The notes under the pieces are model-generated. The model did no database searches. It was not told the DNA's origin and saw only the letters and a list, made by a program, of their open reading frames with translations. DNA of 64,000 bases from contig JBDKTO010000045.1 in the NCBI GenBank assembly GCA_039680175.1, positions 69,671-133,670 on the forward strand, in the 5' to 3' direction. This DNA is from Veillonellales bacterium (lineage in GTDB: Bacteria > Bacillota > Negativicutes > JAAYSF01). The translations under genes were made by a program, and so were the position numbers. The stretch's first letter is position 1. The number at the start of each line of letters is the position of its first letter. Below are positions 3,044 to 60,316 of the stretch, piece after piece.

Positions 3044-4831
3044 TTACTTTTTGAGCAAAATATTCGTTTTAATCGAAAGCTCCTTAAGCTGTTTCGTTGA
3101 AACCTCAGAGGGTGCTTGTGTCATAACGTCGGTAGCGCTCTGAGTTTTAGGGAAAGCGATGACATCACGAATCGAAGCTCGTTTCGCCATTAGCATAACC
3201 AGCCGGTCCAAGCCAAAAGCAATTCCGCCGTGAGGAGGAGTTCCGTACTCAAAAGCTTCCAAAAGATAACCAAATTTCGACATAGCTTCTTCCGGTGTCA
3301 ACCCAATGGTCTTAAAGACCTGTTCCTGCAAATCCCGGTTATAAATCCGAATACTGCCGCCACCTATTTCAGTACCATTGAGTACCATATCATAGGCTTT
3401 TGCTTTAATCCGACCCGGATCACTTGCCAAATAATGTACATCTTCCATTCTTGGCGATGTAAATGGATGATGCATGGCAACCCAGCGTTTTTCATCATCA
3501 TTAAATTCAAACATGGGGAAGTCCAAGACCCACAAAAAGGACAATTTGTCCGGATCGATTAAATTTAAGCGTCGAGCCATTTCCAGCCGCAATTGGCCTA
3601 AGGCAGCAGCTACAATATTCGGTTTGTCTGCAATAATCAATAATAAATCGCCAGTCTGAGCTTGTGTCTGTGCTGTAATCCGGTCAATAATTTCAGCCGA
3701 GAAAAATTTAGTAATCGGCGATTTAATTCCGTCGTCAGTATAACACATCCAGGCTAATCCCTTGGCACCATAATTTCCTACATAATTGATCAAGCCATCC
3801 AGTTCTCGTCGGGGAATTGCCGCATTACCTTTCACATTAATGGCCTTAACCTGCCCACCATGAGTCAAAACGGTTTCAAACACCTTGAAATTAGAACCTT
3901 TTACTGCCGATGAAATATCGATCAGTTCCATTCCAAAGCGCAAATCAGGTTTATCCGAGCCAAAGCGGGCCATCGCTTCGTCAAAGCTTAATCGCAAGAA
4001 TGGGGTGGCAATTTCAGCCCCAATACATTGGTTAAAGAGGATGGTAACCATTTCCTCCATCATTTTTAAAATGTCCTCCCGATCAATAAAGGACATTTCG
4101 ATATCAAGCTGGGTAAACTCCGGCTGACGGTCGGCTCTTAAGTCCTCATCCCGGAAACACCGCACGATCTGAAAATACCGTTCAAAACCCGATACCATTA
4201 ATATCTGCTTAAAAAGTTGCGGCGATTGGGGCAACGCATAGAACTTTCCCGGATTCACCCGGCTGGGAACCAAATAGTCTCTGGCGCCTTCCGGTGAACT
4301 TTTAGTCAGCATAGGGGTTTCCACTTCCCAAAAACCATGCTTATCAAAAAAATCCCGCATTACTTTTGTGACCCGGTGCCGCAGCATTAAATTTCGCTGC
4401 ATTTCCGGACGGCGTAAGTCCAGATAGCGATATCGCAGCCGCAGTGTTTCATCCACATCAATATGATCCTGAATATAGAAAGGCGGTGTTTTCGCGGCAT
4501 TTAAGACGCGAAGTTCCGTACAATCCACTTCAATTTCGCCAGTGGACATATTGGGATTGATAGTCTCTGCTGTTCGGCGCTTTACTGTTCCTTTAATTGC
4601 CAGCACGTATTCAGAGCGAACCGCTTCGGCCTTTTTAAAAGCCTCCGTATCCATTTCCGGTGAAAAAACTACCTGCACCAAACCGGAACGATCCCTCAGA
4701 TCAATAAAAATCAGGCCCCCATGATCCCTTCGGTGGGAAACCCAGCCGCATAAGACAACTTCACTGCCTTCATGCTGGGCTCGTAAGTCCTCGCAAGAAT
4801 GTGTACGGTGTAAACCTTCCATTGTATCCAT
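3044..4831 (-). CDS. aspS: Aspartyl-tRNA synthetase
   Basis: This is a 595-residue class II synthetase with an N-terminal OB anticodon-binding fold ([26 protein letters not shown]), a bacterial GAD insertion, motif 2 ([20 protein letters not shown]) and motif 3 ([12 protein letters not shown]). I place the start at ATG 4831 ([11 protein letters not shown]) because GGAGG lies nine bases upstream; a longer frame exists but would overlap hisS and lacks a better site. hisS ends 4 nt upstream, so the two are translationally close in a hisS-aspS operon. Many such enzymes are non-discriminating (Asp/Asn); that cannot be settled here. Confidence 0.95.
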
Positions 4832-4835
4832 AATT

Positions 4836-6104
4836 TTATTCCTCCATCCCGGCTTGCACTTGCTGCACAACTTTGTCTGCATCCAGCAAATCCTGTAAAC
4901 CTGTTTTCATATTTCGCAGCATCACTTTTCCCTGAGCTGCCTCGTCATCACCGATGATCGCAGTAAACTGGGCTAAATATTTATTTGCTTGTTTCATCTG
5001 TGCCTTTAGACTGCGTTCCATATAATCCATATCCGCTTTAATTCCCGCCTGCCGTAATGCCGATAAAAGCTTAACTGCACCAGCCTGGGCGCTATTATTT
5101 CCCAATGAAGCCACAAAAACGGTCAGTCGTCTGTTTGCTTCCGGCAGTAAGCCTTGCTTCTCCAAGGCCAGCAGCACTCGTTCCAAGCCAATGGCAAAAC
5201 CAATACCCGGAGTTGAATCGCCGCCACATTCCGCGATCAGCCCGTCATAACGCCCGCCGCCGCATACTGCACTTTGTGCCCCAAGGGGCGCATATTGAAT
5301 TTCAAAAGCAGTTTTGGTGTAATAATCCAGACCTCTTACCAGCCGGGGATTCAATGTATAAGTAACACCGGCCGCGGTGAGCATTTTCTGCAGCTGACTG
5401 AAATGCTCCTGACAGTCTTCACATAAACAGTCCGCTACTTGCGGCGCACCTTGGGAAAGCTGCCCGCAATTTTCATTTTTACAATCCAAAATACGCATAG
5501 GATTTCGTTCAAATCGTGACTGACAGTCTTTACACAGTTTTTCTAAATTTGGCCGCAAAAAATTCTGCAATTTTTTCCGATAAACCGGACGACATTGAGG
5601 ACAGCCAACTGAATTCAAATAAAGCTGCAGATCATCCAAACCAAGCCGCTGCAAAAATTGAACTGCTAACATAATAATTTCCGCATCAATTCCTGGTCCC
5701 CTGGCACTTAAGGCTTCGACTCCAAATTGATGAAACTGGCGAAACCGTCCGGCCTGCGGACGGTCATACCGGAACATCGGGCCAACATAAAAAAGCTTAG
5801 TTGGCTGTGATTCCGCATACATTTTATGCTCCAAAAAACTTCTTACAACAGCTGCTGTATTTTCCGGCCGTAAAGTTACACTGCGACCGCCTCGGTCAAT
5901 AAAAGTATACATCTCTTTTTCCACGATATCGGTGGTTTCGCCAATACCCCGAAGAAACAACTCCGTATGTTCAAAAATAGGAGTGCGAATCTCGTGATAG
6001 GAAAAGATACTGCAAATATCCCGCGCAATCTGCTCCACATACTGCCAGTGACCGATTGAATCCGGCAATATGTCTTTGGTCCCGCGCGGACCGGTTGTTA
6101 ACAT
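4836..6104 (-). CDS. hisS: Histidyl-tRNA synthetase
   Basis: This 422-residue class II synthetase shows motif 1 around [22 protein letters not shown], motif 2 ([26 protein letters not shown]), the histidine-A motif ([15 protein letters not shown]) and motif 3 ([12 protein letters not shown]), followed by a C-terminal HGTP anticodon-binding domain. The insertion carries paired cysteines ([18 protein letters not shown]), which suggests a metal-binding insert as in many Firmicute enzymes. It lies 5 nt after hemZ and 4 nt before aspS. No T-box leader is possible in the 5-nt gap, so expression must come from upstream. Confidence 0.95.
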
Positions 6105-38828: not shown

Positions 38829-40049
38829 CTACTTTGCTAATTCATAAAGTGTTTCCGCTAAAACATCAATTCCAGCCATAATATCTTCCGGATTGACATA
38901 TTCATCCGGATTGTGACTCAACCCATCATGACAAGGAATAAAAATCATTCCGGCAGGTGCTAAATAAGCCATATTCATGGCATCATGCCCAGCCCCGCTA
39001 TTCATCCGCTTGTATGTTTTCCCCGCTTTGCGACAAACCTTTTCGATTACCTGGGTTATCGCCTGATTCATTTGTACCGGTTTGTCAGCGGATAGCATTT
39101 CAATGGCCATGGAGGTTTCCTGTCCTTCGGCAATAGTGCTAACTGCATCCTTAATATCCTGCAGGCATTCGATAATACTTTTTTGATCCACACCACGAAT
39201 ATCTACCCACAATTCCACTAACCCAGGTATGACATTCATAGCGCCTGGATACACTTTTAACGCTCCAACTGTTCCCACCGTACCATAACGAGATTGTTCC
39301 AAAGCAACTTCCTGTATAGCCAGAATAATGGCTGCCGCACTCACCAGAGCATCGTGCCGATCTTCCATCGGCGTCGTTCCCGAATGGCCGGCAACACCCT
39401 GCACAGTAATTTTTAAACGGGTAGGAGCCGCAATCGCCTCAACAATGCCAATACTGTGACCTTCTTTCTCCAATACAGGTCCCTGTTCTATATGTAATTC
39501 AAGAAAGGCTTTGATATCCTGCTTATTTCTCATACAGTTTCCAATTGTTTCAAAATCAAGTCCCTGCTCCCGTAAAGCTTGAGGAAAAGAGATGCCTTCA
39601 CAATCAGTTGCTTTTCTCCAAGCTTTACTGTTCCCCCTGCCAGTCATAGCTTTACTTCCCATTGTGGCATAAGCAAAACGGCTGGATTCCTCGGCAGCAA
39701 ATACAACCACTTCTAAAGGATGGTTCGTAGAACGCTCCTTTAGACGCCTCATAGCCGCCAATCCCCCAACCACTCCCACTACGCCGTCATATTTACCGCC
39801 GTCAGGAACAGTATCCAAATGCGAGCCGGTAAGCACAGCCGGCAACCGTGGATCCATGCCTTCAAGGCGTCCGATTACGTTGCCGATCTCATCCTGCCGG
39901 ACAACCATGCCGATGTCTTGCATTAACTTGATTACATACTGTTTAGCTTGCATATCAGCCTTGCTAAAAGCCTGCCGGTTTATACCGTGGTCTGCTTTCC
40001 CAAATTCAGAAATGTGTTGAATAATCTCCATGGCCCACTCTTTATCCAT
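38829..40049 (-). CDS. M20-family amidohydrolase (allantoate amidohydrolase / N-carbamoyl-L-amino acid hydrolase)
   Basis: The 406-residue zinc enzyme has GSHLDTVPDGGKYDGVVGV, AAEESSRF, HIEQGPVLE and GAGHDAMNMA, the metal and substrate motifs of the HyuC/AllC group. It cleaves N-carbamoyl or ureido groups; which one cannot be told from sequence. No other allantoin or hydantoin genes are near. A nitrogen-scavenging role would fit the glutamine synthetase and asparaginase genes nearby (inference). Confidence 0.85.
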   Translation of the reverse strand: MDKEWAMEIIQHISEFGKADHGINRQAFSKADMQAKQYVIKLMQDIGMVVRQDEIGNVIGRLEGMDPRLPAVLTGSHLDTVPDGGKYDGVVGVVGGLAAMRRLKERSTNHPLEVVVFAAEESSRFAYATMGSKAMTGRGNSKAWRKATDCEGISFPQALREQGLDFETIGNCMRNKQDIKAFLELHIEQGPVLEKEGHSIGIVEAIAAPTRLKITVQGVAGHSGTTPMEDRHDALVSAAAIILAIQEVALEQSRYGTVGTVGALKVYPGAMNVIPGLVELWVDIRGVDQKSIIECLQDIKDAVSTIAEGQETSMAIEMLSADKPVQMNQAITQVIEKVCRKAGKTYKRMNSGAGHDAMNMAYLAPAGMIFIPCHDGLSHNPDEYVNPEDIMAGIDVLAETLYELAK

Positions 40050-50423: not shown

Positions 50424-51644
50424 TTATTTATCCAAACTGAATTTTTGAATTACACTGTCTATCTCCCGTTTCAAAATGTCAGGCAACCCTTCAATATTAA
50501 TGTTGAGAAAGCCTCGAACAATGGCGGCGATAGCTTCTTCCTCATTCAGGCCGCGGGCCATTAAATATTCGATCTCTTCCGGAGCAATCTTCCCTACTGC
50601 TGCTTCATGGCTGAGTTCCGCATTACAGGTACGGGCTTCCAATTCGGGAACCGCATGAATAACGCCTTTGTCGGATAAAAGCAGACCATGGCACTCCAAA
50701 TGTGCTTTGGTTTCCGGTGCCTGTCCCAACAAATGTCCACGGTTAATGACTACTCCGCCGGTACTGATAGTACGGGCAATAATCTCTGCCTTTGTTCCCG
50801 GTGATGCTAAAACGGCACGTCCCCCAACATCCATATTCGAACCAGGCGGGGCAACAATAATGGAATTAATTCGTGAAGTAGCCCCTGGGCCTACTAATTT
50901 AGTAGTCGGATACATTTGCAAATTTTTTACCGGATGCATACAGATATAATTAGACATATATAAACCATTTTCTTCTACAATTACGCTGGTTCGAGGACGA
51001 ACTGCAACATCTTCGCCCCAGCGATGCAGCATCGTAAAAGTTAATTTCGCGCCTTTTTTTACATAGAATTCACTAATACCGATATGCATGCCCTTTTTCA
51101 CATGTGAGTCAGTTGCACAGCCGGTAATCACGTGCAGTTCTGCACCTTCTTCGACTATGATAACATTGTGAACATCCTGCACAATATCTTCTTGTCCAAT
51201 GTAGAGGCAGGCTTGTACCGGATATTCAATTTTCGAACCGGCAAAAGCGCGAATAAAATAACCGTGTTCTTGATGCAACGCTGCTCTTGCGGTATATTTA
51301 TCAACATCCGGCTCTACTGCCTGCCACCAATAATCAGCCAAACCGTCATATTTATTCAGAGCATCATCTATATTTAAAATTTCTACGCCTTTAGTTGATG
51401 TATTGCAATGTATAATAGAATGATCAAGCTGCATATAAGTTCCGGCCCGTTCGTCCCCCTTTACTTCAATGCCAATACTCTGCAGTTGTTTTTGCTGCTC
51501 TGACGATAATGAACCAGGATTGGAAACATATTTTTCTTCTTTTGCATTATCAGCATAAACTGTTAAATCAATATCTGCACCCAATGCAGCTTTTTTTGTT
51601 AAAGCCGCATGTGCTTTATTCTTTATGTTCTGTTCATTTTCCAT
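50424..51644 (-). CDS. sufB: SufB/SufD family Fe-S scaffold protein
   Basis: The 406-residue protein has the SufBD beta-helix core (HVITGCATDSHVKKGMHIGISEFYVKKGAKLTFTMLHRWGEDVAVRPRTSV) and C-terminal (CHGLLLSDKGVIHAVPELEARTCNAELSHEAAVGKI), including the conserved ...AELSHEAAVGKI helix. It assembles [Fe-S] clusters with the SufC ATPase encoded 12 nt upstream. Only SufB- and SufC-like genes are present (a minimal SufBC system as in many anaerobes); no SufS/SufU beside it. Confidence 0.9.
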   Translation of the reverse strand: MENEQNIKNKAHAALTKKAALGADIDLTVYADNAKEEKYVSNPGSLSSEQQKQLQSIGIEVKGDERAGTYMQLDHSIIHCNTSTKGVEILNIDDALNKYDGLADYWWQAVEPDVDKYTARAALHQEHGYFIRAFAGSKIEYPVQACLYIGQEDIVQDVHNVIIVEEGAELHVITGCATDSHVKKGMHIGISEFYVKKGAKLTFTMLHRWGEDVAVRPRTSVIVEENGLYMSNYICMHPVKNLQMYPTTKLVGPGATSRINSIIVAPPGSNMDVGGRAVLASPGTKAEIIARTISTGGVVINRGHLLGQAPETKAHLECHGLLLSDKGVIHAVPELEARTCNAELSHEAAVGKIAPEEIEYLMARGLNEEEAIAAIVRGFLNINIEGLPDILKREIDSVIQKFSLDK

Positions 51645-51656
51645 ATCTTTATCCCC

Positions 51657-52409
51657 CTATAATACACAATTAACACATTCTCCATAACCTTTTTCTTTAA
51701 TACAAGAGAGCATTTCTTGCGGATTACCGCTGCAGGCTAATGTCCCCTGATACATCACATGTGCTATATCCGCCGGAACATATTGTAAAATATGGCCTGT
51801 ATGGGTAATAATCAGTCCCGATTTTTGACGTGCTGCCCGACACTTTTTAATTGTTTGCCCTGTCTTACGCATGCCGCGTTCTAAAATATAATTGGTTGCT
51901 TTTCCAACCAATGCAATATTTTCAATGTCAACACCAGACTCCGGTTCATCTAACATAACCAAATCCGGCTGCTGCGCCATTAACTGCAGCAATTCAGAAC
52001 GTTTAATTTCACCACCGGAAAAGCCTTCGTTAACTCCTCTTTCTAAAAATGCCCTCATATTCATTTCGTCTACCAATTTCCCCAGATCAATTTGTCTTTT
52101 ACCACAAATCTGGACTATTTCTCTCACCGTAATGCCTCTCAATGTCGGCGGACGTTGAATCATAACCCCAATCCCTAAACGGGCGCGTTCGTCAATGGTA
52201 CTATTCGTTATATCCTGCCCCTTAAAATAAATCTTTCCGCCAGTAACAGTATACCGTGAAAAGCCCATAATCGCACTAATTAACGTTGACTTTCCAGTAC
52301 CGTTTGGCCCAAATAATACGTGTACCTCTCCTGGCTTGATATGTAAATTTATATCATGTAATATAGGACGGCCATCTACCGCAATCGACAAATTCTCTAA
52401 TTTTAACAT
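51657..52409 (-). CDS. sufC: Fe-S assembly ATPase SufC
   Basis: The 250-residue ABC ATPase has Walker A FGPNGTGKSTL, the signature FSGGEIKRSELLQLM, Walker B LVMLDEPESGVDIE and the SufC-typical start MLKLENLSIAVDGRPILHDIN. Start ATG 52409 follows GGAGGAACA. A degenerate copy of the ATGAA-N6-TTCAT operator lies about 50-65 nt upstream (52459-52477), linking it to the adjacent plus-strand genes. Confidence 0.94.
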   Translation of the reverse strand: MLKLENLSIAVDGRPILHDINLHIKPGEVHVLFGPNGTGKSTLISAIMGFSRYTVTGGKIYFKGQDITNSTIDERARLGIGVMIQRPPTLRGITVREIVQICGKRQIDLGKLVDEMNMRAFLERGVNEGFSGGEIKRSELLQLMAQQPDLVMLDEPESGVDIENIALVGKATNYILERGMRKTGQTIKKCRAARQKSGLIITHTGHILQYVPADIAHVMYQGTLACSGNPQEMLSCIKEKGYGECVNCVL

Positions 52410-52458
52410 TATTGTTCCTCCAATCCTATTACTATTTACCCTTCTATCTTCGCATAGT

Positions 52459-52477
52459 TTTGAAACTAAGTTCATAA
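52459..52477 (-). promoter_or_regulatory. Degenerate TGAA-N6-TTCA operator upstream of sufC
   Basis: The plus strand reads TTTTGAA-ACTAAG-TTCATAA, matching the plus-strand regulon operator at nine of the ten core positions. It sits upstream of sufC's ribosome site where the minus promoter should lie. Weaker than the five perfect copies nearby. Confidence 0.5.
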
Positions 52478-52537: not shown

Positions 52538-52588
52538 TTGACATTTCATAATAAATAATATATATTTATTATGAAATATAGTTCATAA
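52538..52588 (+). promoter_or_regulatory. Promoter with overlapping operator for the radical SAM gene
   Basis: TTGACA (52538-52543), 17 bases, TATATT (52561-52566). An inverted repeat with 14-base arms (52544-52557 and 52563-52576, arm TTTCATAATAAATA) fills the spacer and -10, and a TTATGAA-ATATAG-TTCATAA operator (52569-52588) follows over the start region. The same layout recurs at 54973 and 56518. Confidence 0.72.
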
Positions 52589-52685
52589 TAAGAAAAGAAT
52601 AATATACTACAAGTCACAGCGCTGAATAAATTTTCCACCTAATTATAAAATATATTTCAAATTTTTAGCAAAGGGGATTAGCGAA

Positions 52686-53861
52686 ATAAAGCTTTTAGCA
52701 GAACAAGGCTTACTTTTCACTTCCAATAGCTACCTCGAACATATTGTACAGCAAAAGAAAGCGGATCACAGTGTAAAAGCTCTATGTTTGCATGTGGCCC
52801 ACGATTGCAACTTACGCTGTGAATATTGCTTTGCGGCAAAAGGCGATTATCACAGTGGTCGCAAACTGATGCCTTTAGAAGTTGCCTTAGCTGCAGTTGA
52901 TTTTCTCGTGAAGAATTCCGGAAACAAACACACTCTGGAAATTGATTTTTTCGGGGGTGAGCCCTTGATGAATTTCGATACCGTAAAAAAAGTAGTTGCC
53001 TACGGACGAAACATTGAAAAAAAGTCGGAAAAACATTTCTATTTCACCATCACAACAAACGGGACCTTACTGAATAAAGAAAATATCGATTTCATCAACC
53101 GGGAAATGGATAACATTGTTATCAGTCTGGATGGAAGAAAACAAATTCATGATTCCATCCGCTGTGACAGGTCAGGAAAGGGAACCTATGACAAAATAGT
53201 ACCCCTTGCTCAGCAACTCGTTCAAAAAAGAGGAGATAAGAGTTATTTTATCCGAGGTACATTTACTGCCAGAAACAAAGATTTTTCCAAAGATGTGCTG
53301 CACTTAGCATCCCTCGGATTCAAAGAAATTTCTATTGAACCGGTAGTTGGTCTTGGCGAAAAATTATTTATTACCAAACAAGATCTTCCTGAGATACTGC
53401 ATGAATATGAAACATTTGCCCTCGAATACAGCAACGTCTTGCAAAAGAAAAACCCCTTTCGTTTTTATCACTTTAATCTGAACTTATATAACGGACCTTG
53501 TATTTATAAGCGAATCACCGCTTGCGGCGCAGGCTTTGAATACCTGGCGGTCTCACCGGAAGGCGATCTTTACCCCTGTCATCAATTCGTAGGGCAAAAA
53601 GAATTTTCTTTGGGCAATGTAAATAAGGGCATTACCAATAATATCTTAAAAAATCGCTTTCAAAACAACAATATCCTTACTAAAGAAAAATGTCGGGACT
53701 GCTGGGCAAAATTATTCTGTTCCGGTGGATGTCATGCCAATTCCTGGTATTCAAACGGAACACTAGACATCCCAAATGACATTGCCTGTACATTACAAAA
53801 AAAGCGCATTGAATGCGCACTGATGATACAAATCTTGCCTCACATGCAAAAGAAAAGCTGA
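52686..53861 (+). CDS. SCIFF-maturase-like radical SAM/SPASM protein, 5'-truncated
   Basis: From residue ~28 the frame reads SVKALCLHVAHDCNLRCEYC, the opening of SCIFF peptide maturases, with CxxxCxxC at C41, C45, C48, then FFGGEPLMNF, YLAVSPEGDLYPCHQF and SPASM cysteines (CGAG, CHQF, CRDCWAKLFCSGGCHAN). The usual maturase is about 450 residues with an N-terminal RRE domain; here the frame opens only at 52626 and no ATG/GTG/TTG precedes 52788, although EIKLLAEQGLLFTSN is maturase-like. AAAGGGG lies nine bases before an ATA at 52686, my tentative start. No SCIFF peptide is adjacent. It may be a decayed or non-canonical-start gene under the operator-bearing promoter. Confidence 0.72.
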   Translation: MKLLAEQGLLFTSNSYLEHIVQQKKADHSVKALCLHVAHDCNLRCEYCFAAKGDYHSGRKLMPLEVALAAVDFLVKNSGNKHTLEIDFFGGEPLMNFDTVKKVVAYGRNIEKKSEKHFYFTITTNGTLLNKENIDFINREMDNIVISLDGRKQIHDSIRCDRSGKGTYDKIVPLAQQLVQKRGDKSYFIRGTFTARNKDFSKDVLHLASLGFKEISIEPVVGLGEKLFITKQDLPEILHEYETFALEYSNVLQKKNPFRFYHFNLNLYNGPCIYKRITACGAGFEYLAVSPEGDLYPCHQFVGQKEFSLGNVNKGITNNILKNRFQNNNILTKEKCRDCWAKLFCSGGCHANSWYSNGTLDIPNDIACTLQKKRIECALMIQILPHMQKKS

Positions 53862-53877
53862 AAAATTTTTTCGCCGC

Positions 53878-53906
53878 TTAATGAAACATATTTCATTATG
53901 TATAAT
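53878..53906 (+). promoter_or_regulatory. Operator and -10 element upstream of the CDF transporter gene
   Basis: TAATGAAA-CATA-TTTCATTA (53879-53898) contains the ATGAA-N6-TTCAT core (53881-53896) and is followed by TATAAT (53901-53906). No good -35 is visible; the palindrome occupies that position. Confidence 0.6.
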
Positions 53907-53980
53907 CCCCCCCCTCTTTCATTTATATATACTTTTGTTTTACAGCTTATTTCACTTTTGCGAAAGGAGGTCTCCGCAGA

Positions 53981-54886
53981 ATGACCGAAAGTACGAACTC
54001 CTTAAAACAAAATACGGCGCAACTGTCTGTCATCGCCACTTCCGTACTGTTAATTTTAAAGCTAGTAGTCGGTATGTTTACCGGAACCATCAGTATCCTT
54101 TCCGAAGCCATTCATTCGGCAGTCGACTTGCTGGCAACTCTGATCGCTTATTATGCCATAAAAAAGTCGGCTGCATCCCCCGATGACAATCACCACTACG
54201 GCCACGGCAAATTCGAAAATGTATCCGGCGCTTCAGAAGCATTGCTCATTGTCGCAGCAGCTTTGTGGATCATATATGAAGCTTATGAAAAGTACAGCCA
54301 CGCCAACTCGCCTGTTTTTCTAGAATACGGAATGATTGTCATGCTCATTTCTATTGCAATCAATTACTTTGTTTCCCATAAAATGCTGACCGTCGCCAAA
54401 CAAACCGGCTCCCCTGCCTTGGAAGCTGACGCGCTCCATTTGCAAGCTGACATGTGGACATCCGGCGGCATACTAATCGGTTTATTTTTCCTCCACATAA
54501 CCAGCTGGGCGTGGATTGATTCGACAATCGCCATAATGGTGGCCATAATAATTTTAAAAACAGGCTATGCAATGATCAAGAAAAATATATCTGAACTAAC
54601 CGACATCAGTCTGCCAAAAGAAGAAGAACAGCTAATTTCTGAAATCATTAACCAGCATGATCAAGTAATATCCCTATCCCAGTTACGTACCAGACATTCC
54701 GGAAGCTATCGCCTGATTGATATGCATCTCATCTTAGATAAGCACATGCCATTAGATAAAGCTCATACCATCTGCGATCAAGTGGAAGCGGACATCAAGC
54801 ACCACTTGGGTATATGCGATGTAATGATTCATTTAGAACCCGATAGCAGAAAAAAAGCACCGTTTATTCCCAGCAATCAAATTTGA
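53981..54886 (+). CDS. Cation diffusion facilitator (CDF) metal exporter
   Basis: The 301-residue protein has six membrane helices with the zinc-site motifs HSAVDL (helix 2) and HLQADMWTS (helix 5), the HHYGHGKFEN loop and a C-terminal cytoplasmic domain with further acidic/histidine residues. It exports divalent metals (Zn, Fe, Mn, Co) by proton antiport; metal not assignable. Ribosome site AAAGGAGG. The operator upstream matches its neighbours' and, by core, ArsR/SmtB sites that control CDF genes elsewhere. Confidence 0.9.
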   Translation: MTESTNSLKQNTAQLSVIATSVLLILKLVVGMFTGTISILSEAIHSAVDLLATLIAYYAIKKSAASPDDNHHYGHGKFENVSGASEALLIVAAALWIIYEAYEKYSHANSPVFLEYGMIVMLISIAINYFVSHKMLTVAKQTGSPALEADALHLQADMWTSGGILIGLFFLHITSWAWIDSTIAIMVAIIILKTGYAMIKKNISELTDISLPKEEEQLISEIINQHDQVISLSQLRTRHSGSYRLIDMHLILDKHMPLDKAHTICDQVEADIKHHLGICDVMIHLEPDSRKKAPFIPSNQI

Positions 54887-54972
54887 AATACACTTTTAAA
54901 TTTTTTGCATATCGTCTGCTTTCTCGCGGGCAAAACTTTGTAAAAACTTCTACTATCATTCTGTCCATTTTC

Positions 54973-55036
54973 TTGACATTTCCTGTCAGATAGTATATAT
55001 TAATTATGAAATATAATTCATAATTAATATATACTA
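54973..55036 (+). promoter_or_regulatory. Promoter with 46-bp palindromic operator for the IscU-like/DUF1847/NifX operon
   Basis: TTGACA (54973-54978), 17 bases, TATATT (54996-55001). A perfect palindrome with 20-base arms (54991-55010 and 55017-55036) and a six-base centre covers the -10 and start region; its centre is ATGAA-ATATAA-TTCAT (55006-55021). Promoter geometry is identical to those at 52538 and 56518. Confidence 0.75.
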
Positions 55037-55070
55037 TGATTTGTCCCCATAAAAAAAAGGGAGGTTTTCA

Positions 55071-55459
55071 ATGTATTCCGAAAAGGTATTTGAGCACTTC
55101 ATGTCGCCTCGAAGCACTGGATATATGACTGATGCGGATGGATAGGAAGAATTGGCGAACCTGGTTGTGGCGACAACTGTATGATTTTTATCAAAGTCCG
55201 GGAAGGAATAATTTACGATATCAGTTTTCTTATTTTTGGCTGCGGTGCCGCCGTCGCTTCCGGCAGTATGACAACTGTCCTCGCCAAAGGGAAAACCCTT
55301 CAGGCGGCTTTAACGATCACGGAACAGAATATCATTGATGCCCTAGACGGATTACCCGAGGCAAAGCAGCACTGTTCAAATCTTGGCGTGGCAGCCTTGC
55401 GTTCGGCCATTCAAAATTATTTATCAAAACAGGGGCACTCCATAGAAGAGTACGATTAA
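55071..55459 (+). pseudogene. IscU/NifU-N-like Fe-S scaffold gene with one-base frameshift
   Basis: ATG 55071 follows GGGAGG and gives MYSEKVFEHFMSPRSTGYMTDADG, then TAG at 55143-55145. Reading -1 from 55142 restores IGRIGEPGCGDN and the rest of an IscU-like protein (129 residues in all) with its three cluster cysteines (about 33, 58 and 102) and FGCGAAVASGSM. No family residue is lost at the junction, so a single deleted base explains it. The sequence around it is not a canonical slippery site. It is either a recent mutation or a sequencing error. Confidence 0.85.
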
Positions 55460-55517
55460 AATCTTATGATACTAAATTTATCAAGCAAAAATAATTCACT
55501 TATTGGGAGATGGTATG

Positions 55518-56099
55518 ATGCAATGTGCACTATGTAAACAAAAAAATTGCTACACCGGACAAAATTGTCCCGGCCTGCAGCCTGACGAAATCAAAGCAGT
55601 CTATGATACAACCGATCGCCAGCTCATGACAGCAGCAGCCAAAATTGAAGGAAACTATTATATGCAGTTGTCGCGTCTGGAAGAAAGCGTAAAATTTGCT
55701 CAAGAAATCGGCTGTACTTCTATTGGCGTAGCTTTTTGCCATGGTTTGGCCAACGAAGCCAACTATATCGTGCAATACTTTCAAAAGTTTTTCACCGTAC
55801 ATTCCGTGTGCTGCAAAGTCTGCGGATTTGACAAACATCAGTTCAATCTTAAACAAATCAAAAAAGATCGCTATGAAGCAATGTGCAATCCGGCAATACA
55901 AGCTAAAGTCCTTAATGACGCAGGTACTGAATTAAACTTCGCCGTGGGTCTTTGCGTGGGACATGATATGATTTTCAATCGTCATTCAACAGCGCCTGTA
56001 TCGACACTTGTAGCCAAAGATCGTCTACTAAGCCATAATCCCCTTGGTGCTATTTACTCCGGCTATTGGCGCAATAAGCGGCTTGGATTAACGGACTAA
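55518..56099 (+). CDS. DUF1847 metal-binding-like protein
   Basis: The 193-residue protein begins MQCALCKQKNCYTGQNCPG and has further cysteines (CTSIGVAFCHGLANEA, CCKVCGFDKHQFN, MCNPAIQA, GLCVGHDMIF), the pattern of the DUF1847 family of anaerobes. Function is unknown; the cysteine count suggests metal or cluster binding. GGGAG precedes two adjacent ATGs; 55518 has the better spacing. Second in the operon behind the IscU-like gene. Confidence 0.85.
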   Translation: MQCALCKQKNCYTGQNCPGLQPDEIKAVYDTTDRQLMTAAAKIEGNYYMQLSRLEESVKFAQEIGCTSIGVAFCHGLANEANYIVQYFQKFFTVHSVCCKVCGFDKHQFNLKQIKKDRYEAMCNPAIQAKVLNDAGTELNFAVGLCVGHDMIFNRHSTAPVSTLVAKDRLLSHNPLGAIYSGYWRNKRLGLTD

Positions 56100-56122
56100 A
56101 ACAGGGAAGCGAGAAATAAGCC

Positions 56123-56482
56123 ATGAAAATTGCCGTTACAGCCCATGGCAATACCCATTTGGCAAAAATAGACTCTCGTTTTAACCTTGCGGAATATTTC
56201 ATTCTCTATGATCAAATAAAAGATACTTGGTCAAATCTGGTTAATGCACGAGATTCAGATCCCGTCTATCGGGCAAAAATTCTCTCAGAAAATGGTATAA
56301 AAGTTCTTATCACGGGTTACATCGGTGTAAGAGCCTTTAGACTCTTGCAATCCCAGAACATTACCATTTTTTCGTCAAGAGAAACAAATAGCACTGTTAA
56401 GGAGATCCTCTCTGCCTTTCAGTTCGGCAAGTTAGCCATCCTCTATGCACCAAACGCAATCGAGATACAGAAAAGAAAATAA
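56123..56482 (+). CDS. NifX/NifB-C-like (dinitrogenase Fe-Mo cofactor biosynthesis family) protein
   Basis: The 119-residue protein shows the family start MKIAVTAHGNTHLAKIDSRFNLAEYFILYD and the central GIKVLITGYIGVRAFRLL motif. The family includes NifX, VnfX and the orange protein ORP that binds Mo/Cu-S clusters. No nif structural genes are in the window, so nitrogenase work is not implied. It follows DUF1847 by 23 nt. Confidence 0.87.
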   Translation: MKIAVTAHGNTHLAKIDSRFNLAEYFILYDQIKDTWSNLVNARDSDPVYRAKILSENGIKVLITGYIGVRAFRLLQSQNITIFSSRETNSTVKEILSAFQFGKLAILYAPNAIEIQKRK

Positions 56483-56517
56483 TGTTGCTATCATTTGAAT
56501 TAAACTATATTCTTTTC

Positions 56518-56607
56518 TTGACATTTCATAATAAATGAACTATATTTATTATGAAATATAGTTCATAACTTTTATATTTTTTAACCTTATTATGAAATAT
56601 AGTTCAT
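56518..56607 (+). promoter_or_regulatory. Promoter with duplicated operators for the DUF5320/ATPase operon
   Basis: TTGACA (56518-56523), 17 bases, TATATT (56541-56546). Two perfect ATGAA-ATATAG-TTCAT cores lie at 56551-56566 and 56592-56607, 41 bp apart. Interleaved inverted repeats TTTCATAATAAAT/ATTTATTATGAAA (56524-56556) and ATGAACTATATTT/AAATATAGTTCAT span the spacer. Ribosome site AAAGGAGGTGAT follows. Confidence 0.75.
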
Positions 56608-57863: not shown

Positions 57864-58757
57864 ATGAAAGAATTAGTCATTGTCAGCGGCAAAGGCGGAA
57901 CGGGTAAAACCAGCATCAGCGCCGCCCTCGCTTTTATTGCGCTGCATAAAATTCTTGTCGACTGCGATGTCGATGCCGCTAACCTTCATTTAATTAGCGG
58001 CGCTGTCCTTAATGAATCCCATGAATTTACCGCCGGATTTGAACCGCATATTGATAAAAGTCGCTGCACCGCTTGCGGCAAATGTACCGACCTCTGCCGC
58101 TTCGGAGCAATTACTAACGGCGTGCTGACTTCTCCCTTCAATTGTGAAGGCTGTGGCGTTTGCTCATTTAACTGCCCGGCACAAGCCATCCAAATGCAAA
58201 ATAAGAAGGCAGGCCAATGGTTTATATCCGACACCCGCTTAGGACGTTTAGTTCACGCCGAGCTTGGTCTCTCCGTTGAAAATTCCGGCAAGCTCGTCAA
58301 TAAAGTACGGCAGGAGGCCAAAAAAATTGCTGCCGCCGAACAAATTTCTCTTATTATTACTGACGGCCCCCCTGGTATTGGCTGTCCGGCAATTGCTGCC
58401 TTGTCCGGTGCGGATCTGGCGCTGGCCGTTGTTGAACCTTCGATCACCGGCATTCATGATCTGACACGGCTAGTCGACTTGGTGTCTCATTTCAACTTAC
58501 CGCTCACAGTCTGTATCAATAAAAGTAATCTGCATCCGGAAAATACCCGAAACTTAATTGCCTGGTGCCAACAAAACGCTATTGCAGTAGCTGGACAACT
58601 TCCCTATAGCGATATCTTCCGCCATGCTGTCCAAGACGGAAAAACCGTAATGGAAATGCCGTCAAATGAGGATGTAAAACAGCCCCTTATCGAACTATGG
58701 ATCAACTTGTTAAATCGTCTGGCGATAATTGACCAATCAAAGAAGGAAACAAAATGA
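57864..58757 (+). CDS. MinD/ParA-type ATPase with inserted [4Fe-4S] ferredoxin domain (second of pair)
   Basis: The 297-residue paralogue has SGKGGTGKT at residues 8-16, [4Fe-4S] motifs at C68-C78 and C94-C104, and DGPPGIGCPA as switch II. The two ATPases likely work as a heteropair. The stop overlaps the start of the next NifX-like fragment (ATGA, 58754-58757). Its last 63 bases are the source-like match of the duplicated segment at 58854-58916. Confidence 0.9.
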   Translation: MKELVIVSGKGGTGKTSISAALAFIALHKILVDCDVDAANLHLISGAVLNESHEFTAGFEPHIDKSRCTACGKCTDLCRFGAITNGVLTSPFNCEGCGVCSFNCPAQAIQMQNKKAGQWFISDTRLGRLVHAELGLSVENSGKLVNKVRQEAKKIAAAEQISLIITDGPPGIGCPAIAALSGADLALAVVEPSITGIHDLTRLVDLVSHFNLPLTVCINKSNLHPENTRNLIAWCQQNAIAVAGQLPYSDIFRHAVQDGKTVMEMPSNEDVKQPLIELWINLLNRLAIIDQSKKETK

Positions 58758-58927
58758 AAATTGCTTTTACGCCCCACGCTCAAGATTGCCATTCAACCGT
58801 TGATTCCCGCTTTGGTCGTGTTATTTATGATGAAGAAAAAAGCGCGTGGACAACAGCCCCTTATCAAACTATGGATCAACTTAATAAACTGTCTAAGGAT
58901 GACTGCCAAATCAAAGCAATCTGGTAA
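58754..58927 (+). pseudogene. NifX-like 5' fragment fused to a duplicated ATPase 3' end
   Basis: The first ~26 codons (MKIAFTPHAQDCHSTVDSRFGRV) are NifX-like, matching the family pattern at 56123. The frame then goes out of family. The DNA at 58854-58916 matches 58680-58742 at 51 of 63 positions and, in another frame, encodes QPLIKLWINLINCL, a relative of the ATPase tail QPLIELWINLLNRL. So a deletion or recombination joined two genes. A 57-residue frame remains open but is unlikely to be functional. Confidence 0.75.
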
Positions 58928-59032
58928 TATGTCAAGCCCGAAAAAATAAAGAATTGTAAACGAATTCTGAAAAGAGCGTATACTTAATAAGCCTTTTCCA
59001 TAGCCGAAAAGAAAAGGTAATATATGGGAATG

Positions 59033-60316
59033 TTAAGCTTGGCTTACTCCACTTTGAGAGTAAAGCTGATGCTTGGCCAGCAATCCAAAAATCAGCCGAA
59101 CAAATTTACGAGCTGTAAGCGCGAGTGCACGTTTATGCTGATGAGTTTTTGCCTCATCATACTTTTTCTGGTAGAAAGCGGCAAATTCGCCGCAATAGTT
59201 CTTTACATGGCTAACTGCCTCAATCAGATAGTATCTGAGATAAGCATTTCCAGCCTTTGAAAGCTTCGTATTATCTGACGTAAAGTTGCCAGATTGGTTT
59301 TCACGCCAGACAAGACCAGCATACTTGGCAAGGGCATCCTGAGATTTAAAGGCATCAATATAGCCAATCTCAGCAAGAATGCCGGCAGCCATGACAGGCC
59401 CAATCCCCGGAATGGATAAAAGGCTTTGGTAAGCATTGGGATCAAGACCCTTGAGCGTTTTCTCGATGGCTTTATTCACAGCCTTCATTTCAGTTGTATA
59501 CGTTGAAATGAGGTTGAAGGACGAAGCAATGGAGATGGTTAACGGCTCATACAAACATTTATCCAAACGGTAGGAGTTACGGGCTGCCTGTTGCAGAAGC
59601 AAAGCTGTTTTCTTGGGATCGGGGAAGCGGTTGTGCCCTTTTTCACAGATGTAGCCAATTAGTGCTTCCATCGGCATATCAGCGATCTCTTCCGTAGAGA
59701 GAAAATCGGTAAGCACCGAAGAAGCCGTAGCACCGAAGCAATTGGAAAAAGGCTGTTCCTCCTCATCAAGCAGTGAAAATTCGCTGAATTTGAGAAAGAT
59801 ATTAGAAAGCATATAAGCTTTCTCCCGAGTCAAGGATTTAGCCAGATGCAGGCGATGGCGGGTTAAACGCTGTAAAGCGAGAAACTGGCTGCCACGCCAA
59901 GGCTTAACGGTGATTCTGCCAACTCTGGCGAAATCAGCAATGACGAATGCATCAATGTAGTCGTTCTTGCCGAGATCAATGAAAGATTTCTTGTAGTTGG
60001 CAACCATTTTAGGGTTCACACAATAAACAGCTGTATGGAAAGGCATCAAAAGCGGGCAGGAAGAAAGATAATTGGCAATATGAGTGCCATAGAAAGAAGT
60101 TGACTCCAAAGCAATCATGAGCCTGGTAAGGTCAGTATGAAAGCCGAGGAAATCTGCAAGCTTTTGAGCCAGTTCCACAGCGCCGGGCTGATTATTAGCA
60201 ACAGAGAAAGAGATGAGCGGCTTCGACGATTCAAAATCGAGGAGAGCGACCACGTTTTCCCGGGAGCTAATGTCAATCCCGACGAACAAAGTAGAAAGAA
60301 GATCCGCCTTCTTCAT
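59033..60316 (-). CDS. IS110-family transposase (DEDD/Transposase_20)
   Basis: The 427-residue recombinase begins with a RuvC-like DEDD domain (VGIDISSRENV, ALESTSFYGTHIANYL, DLGKNDYIDAFVIADFARVG) and ends in the Transposase_20 domain (LLSIPGIGPVMAAGILAEIGYIDAFKSQDALAKYAGLVWRENQSGN, LSKAGNAYLRYYLIEAVSHV). Such enzymes use a bridge RNA to choose donor and target sites. Start ATG 60316 with AAAGGTGG upstream. The frame is intact. Confidence 0.93.
   Translation of the reverse strand: MKKADLLSTLFVGIDISSRENVVALLDFESSKPLISFSVANNQPGAVELAQKLADFLGFHTDLTRLMIALESTSFYGTHIANYLSSCPLLMPFHTAVYCVNPKMVANYKKSFIDLGKNDYIDAFVIADFARVGRITVKPWRGSQFLALQRLTRHRLHLAKSLTREKAYMLSNIFLKFSEFSLLDEEEQPFSNCFGATASSVLTDFLSTEEIADMPMEALIGYICEKGHNRFPDPKKTALLLQQAARNSYRLDKCLYEPLTISIASSFNLISTYTTEMKAVNKAIEKTLKGLDPNAYQSLLSIPGIGPVMAAGILAEIGYIDAFKSQDALAKYAGLVWRENQSGNFTSDNTKLSKAGNAYLRYYLIEAVSHVKNYCGEFAAFYQKKYDEAKTHQHKRALALTARKFVRLIFGLLAKHQLYSQSGVSQA

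What the first reader, a model, noticed from the sequence alone, without database searches (positions are those of the whole stretch)
52538..56607. Undescribed regulon: ATGAA-N6-TTCAT palindrome at four promoters
Seen: five exact ATGAA-N6-TTCAT cores at 52571, 53881, 55006, 56551 and 56592, four of them with ATATAG or ATATAA centres. Three coincide with promoters of the same geometry, TTGACA-17-TATATT (52538, 54973, 56518), with large inverted repeats around -10. The downstream genes are a radical SAM gene, a CDF exporter, an IscU/DUF1847/NifX-like operon and a DUF5320/ferredoxin-ATPase operon. The core equals the TGAA-N6-TTCA core of ArsR/SmtB/CzrA 12-2-12 operators (established knowledge). 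Inference: an unidentified ArsR-type metal or redox sensor coordinates metal export and metal-cluster assembly. No such regulator gene is in the window.
Basis: partly seen in the sequence, partly recalled or inferred. Interest (0 to 1): 0.75.

Follow-up and report, generated by a model that had tools for sequence, protein, structure and literature searches.

The report
DUF134 repressor controlling iron-sulfur assembly genes
The repeated DNA palindrome is real and is most likely the docking site of a little-studied DNA-binding protein family (DUF134/UPF0251), which appears to switch a set of iron-sulfur-cluster assembly and metal-export genes in strictly anaerobic bacteria, giving this uncharacterised protein family a testable job.

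Summary
In detail: five ATGAA-N6-TTCAT cores in 4 kb (0.25 expected per window). In the whole genome the full operator, TTATGAAATATATTTCATAA, recurs at only two further loci: a paralogous DUF5320/DUF1847/NifX operon, and 11 bp upstream of a DUF134 (UPF0251/COG1342) helix-turn-helix gene. None of the eight ArsR-family genes has it. In 252 genomes of the class the palindrome precedes most members of one DUF134 clade, usually 10-17 bp before the start codon. Genomes with that clade hold 91 sites against 7 control matches; the rest hold 10 against 14. An unbiased scan of 84,980 species genomes finds the exact 20-mer in 29 stretches; 16 lie at such genes or their operons, including Desulfovibrio and Desulfobulbaceae. 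Two other DUF134 clades carry their own palindromes (TTGACATATGTCAA, TTGAGCATATGCTCAA). Operators sit 2 bp after the -10 box of TTGACA-17-TATATT promoters, so repression is the likely mode. Targets are relatives of the ORange-Protein/Mrp iron-sulfur assembly system, a CDF exporter, DUF1847 and, in a relative, SufCB. The regulon is therefore real, but the proposed ArsR sensor is not supported: a DUF134 autorepressor fits far better. Binding and the signal remain untested.

The parts
52538..52566 (+). promoter TTGACA-17-TATATT before the radical SAM gene
   Evidence: sequence; the same geometry in 39 of 71 promoter-like matches next to operators in relatives
52569..52588 (.). operator 1, TTATGAAATATAGTTCATAA; between the radical SAM gene (+) and sufC-sufB (-)
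53879..53898 (.). operator 2, TAATGAAACATATTTCATTA (weakest), before the CDF exporter
   Evidence: CDF genes also follow strong operators in relatives L105, L107, L185, L219
54973..55001 (+). promoter TTGACA-17-TATATT before the IscU/DUF1847/NifX operon
55004..55023 (.). operator 3, TTATGAAATATAATTCATAA, inside a dyad of about 48 bp (54990-55037)
56518..56546 (+). promoter TTGACA-17-TATATT before the DUF5320/MinD operon
56549..56568 (.). operator 4, TTATGAAATATAGTTCATAA
56590..56609 (.). operator 5, TTATGAAATATAGTTCATTA, 41 bp downstream of operator 4
52686..53861 (+). SCIFF-maturase-type radical SAM/SPASM protein lacking about 66 N-terminal residues; start codon unclear
   Evidence: TIGR03974, 577 bits, model positions 67-450 of 451
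53981..54886 (+). CDF cation exporter (FieF/MntE-like superfamily member, metal not assignable)
   Evidence: PF01545, PF16916; TIGR01297
55071..55459 (+). IscU/NifU_N-like scaffold gene, reading frame broken near 55143
   Evidence: PF01592 on 55181-55459; frame compared with relatives L102, L109
55518..56099 (+). DUF1847 protein
   Evidence: PF08901
56123..56482 (+). NifX/Nitro_FeMo-Co domain protein (Orp8-type fold)
   Evidence: PF02579
56629..56892 (+). DUF5320 protein
   Evidence: PF17253
57017..57862 (+). MinD/Mrp-like ATPase with 4Fe-4S ferredoxin insert (Orp3/Orp4 type)
57864..58757 (+). second MinD/Mrp-like ATPase with ferredoxin insert
51657..52475 (-). SufC-like ATPase, divergent from operator 1; possible further target
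   Evidence: TIGR01978 193 bits, just under cut-off; a sufC-sufB pair follows an exact operator in G189 (L214)
50424..51644 (-). SufB-like protein, downstream of sufC
   Evidence: PF01458; SufB/SmsB models below cut-off

Best explanation
The palindromes are operators of a DUF134 (UPF0251/COG1342) transcription factor encoded elsewhere in the genome (contig C51, about 39252-39689, with its own operator at 39222-39241). A dimer of its DeoR/sigma-region-4-like helix-turn-helix reads the TTATGAA half-sites. The operator starts 2 bp after the -10 box and so covers the transcription start; the bound protein most likely blocks RNA polymerase, that is, it is an autorepressor. Its targets are an anaerobe-type metal-cluster assembly module (IscU-like scaffold, DUF5320, two ferredoxin-MinD ATPases, NifX, Mrp-NifX, in one relative SufCB) plus a CDF exporter and DUF1847. 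Inferred only: the C-terminal zinc-ribbon-like cysteine cluster senses metal, Fe-S or redox status and releases repression. Shown: operator, promoter geometry, link to the DUF134 clade, target list. Inferred: binding, repression, signal.
For: Own genome: strong sites occur only at the window operons, the paralogous operon on C38 and the DUF134 gene, and that DUF134 gene has a Mrp ATPase gene further along the same strand. Class: a matrix made from own-genome sites scores 17-32 upstream of 39 of 45 members of one DUF134 clade and mostly under 9 elsewhere (clade 98/95, one change on the tree against 14 in shuffles). Genome counts: 91 sites against 7 control matches in 31 genomes with the clade, 10 against 14 in the others. 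Unbiased exact 20-mer scan: 16 of 29 stretches at DUF134 or target genes, in two phyla. Two other DUF134 clades have their own autoregulatory-looking palindromes. Promoter geometry fixed: -10 starts 8 bp before the site in 39 of 71. Profile match to the DeoR DNA-binding domain, E 5e-5, model superposes at 0.7 A over 40 residues, and DeoR binds TTGAA half-sites in ATTGAACAAAATTTCAAT.
Against: No binding or expression data. Genomes lacking the clade (G050-52, G188, G194) also lack the MinD target, so the covariation ties the whole module together, not the regulator alone. Seven genomes with the clade have no site within 2 mismatches (four f6 genomes, G041, G057, G197). The own protein has proline where DeoR and most clade members have the first helix arginine. 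Most loci were fetched because of DUF134 or the motif, so the target tally (75 of 86) is biased.
Confidence: 0.83

Rival explanations
1. An ArsR/SmtB/CzrA-type metal sensor binds the palindrome.
Against: None of the 8 ArsR-family hits in the genome has the operator or TGAA-N6-TTCA nearby; the autoregulatory copy is at DUF134 genes in many families and two phyla.
Confidence: 0.04
2. DUF134 binds the operator but activates, or switches between activation and repression.
For: The sigma-region-4-like fold could touch RNA polymerase; extra half-sites lie inside the -35/-10 spacer at 52538 and 56518.
Against: Promoters have near-consensus -35 and -10 boxes and the operator lies over the start site, 2 bp after the -10, a blocking position.
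Confidence: 0.12
3. DUF134 is merely a co-regulated member of the module; a different, unseen regulator binds the palindrome.
For: The module (DUF134, motif, MinD) is lost as a whole in several genomes.
Against: Each of three DUF134 clades carries a different palindrome in the same place, which a shared unrelated regulator would not explain; no other regulator gene recurs at the sites.
Confidence: 0.1
4. Chance or repeat-derived motifs in AT-rich promoters.
For: The short core alone equals its control genome-wide; the 52538 promoter-leader is 73% identical to that on contig C38, so some copies arose by duplication.
Against: 20-bp form: 7 against 0 in the own genome, 91 against 7 in clade genomes, conserved position at orthologous genes in many families.
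Confidence: 0.01

Closest known systems
DUF134 / UPF0251 / COG1342 family (PF02001)
   Same: the regulator is a full member by profile (73.8 bits, cut-off 27)
   Different: the family has no described operator, regulon or function in the papers held; this work proposes all three
Bacillus subtilis DeoR (SorC family), DNA-binding domain (7bhy, 8r7y)
   Same: helix-turn-helix about 35% identical over 40 residues, rmsd 0.7 A; operator with TTGAA half-sites, TGAA-N6-TTCA (PMC11229326)
   Different: no sugar-binding SorC domain; DUF134 is 144 aa with a zinc-ribbon-like C-terminus; operator over the start site, not at -60 to -21
orp operons of Desulfovibrio vulgaris (ORange Protein complex, MrpORP)
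   Same: targets are the same kinds of protein: two ferredoxin-ATPases (Orp3/Orp4), NifX-type (Orp8), Mrp-NifX fusion (Orp9/MrpORP)
   Different: D. vulgaris uses sigma-54 with activator DVU2106 and IHF (PMC3897727); here sigma-70-type promoters with a DUF134 operator
ArsR/SmtB/CzrA 12-2-12 operators
   Same: TGAA-N6-TTCA core; a CDF exporter as one target
   Different: regulator gene and autoregulatory copy are DUF134, not ArsR; most targets are Fe-S assembly genes
IscR, the usual Fe-S assembly regulator
   Same: job: a repressor of Fe-S assembly operons
   Different: unrelated protein family and unlike operator (from established knowledge; not compared by tool here)

Membership tests
DUF134/UPF0251 | match to PF02001 over the family cut-off | tested here: met
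   L010 protein 73.8 bits, cut-off 27
DUF134/UPF0251 | helix-turn-helix fold | tested here: met
   model pLDDT 89-96 over residues 21-90, three helices; matches to DeoR and sigma region 4 at 0.7-0.9 A though at Foldseek E about 0.1
DUF134/UPF0251 | DNA binding to the proposed palindrome | not testable with these tools
   needs EMSA or DAP-seq
ArsR/SmtB regulon | an ArsR-family gene carrying or adjoining the operator | tested here: not met
   8 ArsR-family hits, best matrix score 8.5 nearby against 25-32 for true sites
ArsR/SmtB regulon | 12-2-12 type operator core | tested here: met
   TGAA-N6-TTCA present, but DeoR shares it, so not diagnostic
ORange Protein (orp) gene set | paired ferredoxin-MinD ATPases with NifX-type and Mrp-NifX proteins | tested here: met
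   in relatives the order is DUF134-IscU-DUF5320-MinD1-MinD2-NifX-Mrp; in the window the Mrp is missing and lies near the DUF134 gene on C51
ORange Protein (orp) gene set | sigma-54 promoter with a DVU2106-type activator | tested here: not met
   sigma-70-type TTGACA-17-TATATT promoters; presence of a DVU2106 homologue not searched
SorC/DeoR family | C-terminal SorC sugar-binding domain | tested here: not met
   144-aa protein, only DUF134 and a weak zinc-ribbon match

The most novel reading that the evidence does not exclude
DUF134/UPF0251, present in bacteria and archaea, is a family of autoregulatory repressors with clade-specific palindromic operators (TGA-N8-TCA or TGA-N6-TCA around an ATAT centre), and one clade is the dedicated regulator of the anaerobe-type ORP/Mrp/Suf metal-cluster assembly system, sensing metal or Fe-S status through its C-terminal cysteine cluster.
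Probability: 0.6. Interest if true: 0.75.

Novelty: new variant of a known kind. Interest (0 to 1): 0.63.

Why it matters
DUF134 is widespread (137 of 252 genomes of this class; also found in Bacillus, Bacteroides and methanogen control genomes) and has no described function in the papers held. A family-wide operator pattern makes its members testable at once. It also offers a regulator for the poorly understood iron-sulfur and mixed-metal cluster assembly of strict anaerobes, outside the known sigma-54 control of orp in Desulfovibrio, and predicts new members of that pathway (DUF5320, DUF1847, CDF exporter).

Tried and rejected
ArsR regulator: rejected. Short core ATGAA-N6-TTCAT as search key: useless genome-wide, equal to control. 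I guessed that the gene divergent from sufC in G189 (L214 4288-5643) would be the full-length SCIFF maturase; it is a ferredoxin plus iron-hydrogenase-C-like protein instead, so the radical SAM gene as a target is seen only in this genome. Foldseek top ranks were MCM proteins with rmsd about 16 A, not meaningful. Literature: DUF134, UPF0251, COG1342 and PF02001 occur in 4 open papers, none on function.
Full report
OBSERVATION. The sequence shows three promoters with one geometry: TTGACA, 17 bp, TATATT, 2 bp, then a 20-bp operator (52538/52569, 54973/55004, 56518/56549). The short core is not specific in the 4.08-Mb genome: 12 matches against 10 for the reversed control. The full operator is: at up to 2 mismatches from TTATGAAATATATTTCATAA the genome has 7 places and no control match, at up to 3 it has 11 and 1.

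WHERE ELSE IN THE GENOME. Outside the window the strong sites lie at two loci. On contig C38 two sites precede a paralogous operon: DUF5320-ferredoxin at one promoter and DUF1847-NifX at the next, both with TTGACA promoters. On contig C51 ACATGAAATATATTTCATAA ends 11 bp before a 145-codon gene that matches DUF134 at 73.8 bits, cut-off 27. Its -35/-10 (TTGACT-17-TATTAT) again immediately precedes the operator. Further along that locus, on the same strand, is a Mrp ATPase gene.

RELATIVES. PF02001 is found in 137 of 252 genomes of the class. I fetched about 100 DUF134 regions and scored their upstream DNA with a matrix made only from own-genome sites. Scores split in two: 17-32 for members of about 144 aa, with the site usually 10-17 bp before the start codon, and mostly under 9 for the rest. 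On a tree of 121 DUF134 proteins the 39 positives lie in one clade of 45 (support 98/95; one change against 14 in shuffles). By my count, 31 genomes with this clade hold 91 sites (control 7); the other genomes hold 10 (control 14). For 29 of the 31 the clade assignment comes from the tree; G180 and G181 were assigned by inspecting the sequence, and G181 has no site at that gene. Close relatives that lack this clade (G050-G052 beside G048/G049; G188; G194) lack the motif, and also lack the MinD target, so the module is lost as a unit.

UNBIASED SCAN. The exact 20-mer occurs in 29 stretches of 84,980 species genomes. Sixteen lie at DUF134 genes or MinD/DUF5320/CDF operons: Sporomusa, Pelosinus and relatives, and also two Desulfovibrio, one Desulfobulbaceae and one unclassified bacterium. 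Most of the remainder are in unrelated genomes, several of them Gracilibacteria, and look like chance.

A FAMILY-WIDE PATTERN. Two other DUF134 clades have their own palindromes in the same kind of place: TTGACATATGTCAA (28 of 43 clade B genes with at least 11 of 14 matches) and TTGAGCATATGCTCAA (27 of 33 clade C genes with at least 12 of 16), each nearly absent from the other clades. Clade C operators also sit just after a TATAAT-like -10 and before the ribosome-binding site. The own genome's clade C gene has TGAACATATGCTCA before it. Clade-specific palindromes in front of each clade's own gene are hard to explain unless the DUF134 protein binds them.

THE PROTEIN. An AlphaFold model of the Sporomusa ovata member (pLDDT 80.8) shows a helix-turn-helix followed by a beta-rich C-terminus with CxxC pairs. 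The best sequence relatives of known structure are B. subtilis DeoR DNA-binding domains (E 5e-5, ISRPT shared in the recognition region); superposition is 0.7 A over 40 residues although Foldseek E-values are weak. DeoR binds ATTGAACAAAATTTCAAT with base contacts by R34 and R39 (PMC11229326). This is TGAA-N6-TTCA, the same core as in the window, so the core does not point to ArsR. That DeoR R34/R39 correspond to the two arginines of SRPTFHR in DUF134 is my inference from spacing; the own protein has proline at the first.

TARGETS. In the class the sites precede DUF134, DUF5320, MinD1, Mrp-NifX, CDF, IscU-like and DUF1847 genes (75 of 86 distinct sites within 350 bp; biased, since loci were chosen by DUF134 or motif). 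Single cases include SufC-SufB (L214), a DUF364 metal-chelation protein (L114) and a DGC-domain protein (L218). MinD1, MinD2, NifX and Mrp-NifX are the same kinds of protein as Orp3, Orp4, Orp8 and Orp9 of the D. vulgaris ORange Protein complex; MrpORP carries and transfers Fe-S clusters in vitro (PMC6345978). In D. vulgaris those genes are under sigma-54, DVU2106 and IHF (PMC3897727). In the window the sufC-sufB pair lies divergent from operator 1, so it may also be controlled; this is inference.

MECHANISM. Shown: a conserved operator over the start site of strong sigma-70-type promoters, autoregulatory position, a fixed target set. Inferred: dimer binding, repression, and a metal, Fe-S or redox signal read by the C-terminal cysteines. 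Extra half-sites within the -35/-10 spacer at 52538 and 56518, and the 48-bp dyad at 55006, suggest cooperative binding of more than one dimer; this is untested.

ALTERNATIVES. None of 8 ArsR-family hits has the site. An unseen regulator is not excluded but would have to track DUF134 clades. Activation is possible but the site position argues for blocking.

VERDICT. The finding is a new operator-regulon assignment for an uncharacterised transcription-factor family, at the level of strong comparative evidence without biochemistry.

Noticed in passing
window 55071-55459: The IscU-like gene is frameshifted after MYSEKVFEHFMSPRSTGYMTDADG; the paralogue on contig C38 (L004) is reduced to a short stub. 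Intact versions exist in relatives (L102, L109).
   Followed up: partly
window 52538-53861: The radical SAM gene matches the SCIFF maturase model from position 67 of 451, so it lacks about 66 N-terminal residues, and no ATG/GTG/TTG start precedes 52788 in frame; its promoter and leader are 73% identical over 150 bp to those of the DUF5320 gene on contig C38, as if the promoter had been captured.
   Followed up: partly
window 50424-52475 (-): A two-gene SufC-SufB-like (SUF-minimal-like) system, both below the SUF equivalog cut-offs.
   Followed up: no
window 58754-60316: A second NifX-like reading frame (58754-58927) ends early, just before a 427-aa transposase-like gene on the other strand (59033-60316), which looks IS110-like from memory.
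   Followed up: no
L120 3962-4477 (G000 contig C26): Second DUF134 gene (clade C) with a His/Cys-rich tail (HACGGGHHHGGCCGGHSHE) and palindrome TGAACATATGCTCA in front; it may be a metal sensor of a different regulon.
   Followed up: partly
L031, L033, L041, L123 and others: Clade B includes long DUF134 proteins (about 250-300 aa) preceded by TGACATATGTCA; the C-terminal extension was not identified by a profile search here.
   Followed up: partly
L095 2701-3379 (Desulfovibrio): Next to the DUF134 gene with the exact operator is a gene with a weak HMA_2 heavy-metal-associated domain.
   Followed up: no
L146 about 3760-3900 and L158 about 4930-5060, at an operator farther upstream of DUF134: A second conserved element (AAAATGATACTAAG ... 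operator ... GTACA-GCAGTATCA-like) flanks an operator in Pelosinus-like and Propionispora-like genomes.
   Followed up: no
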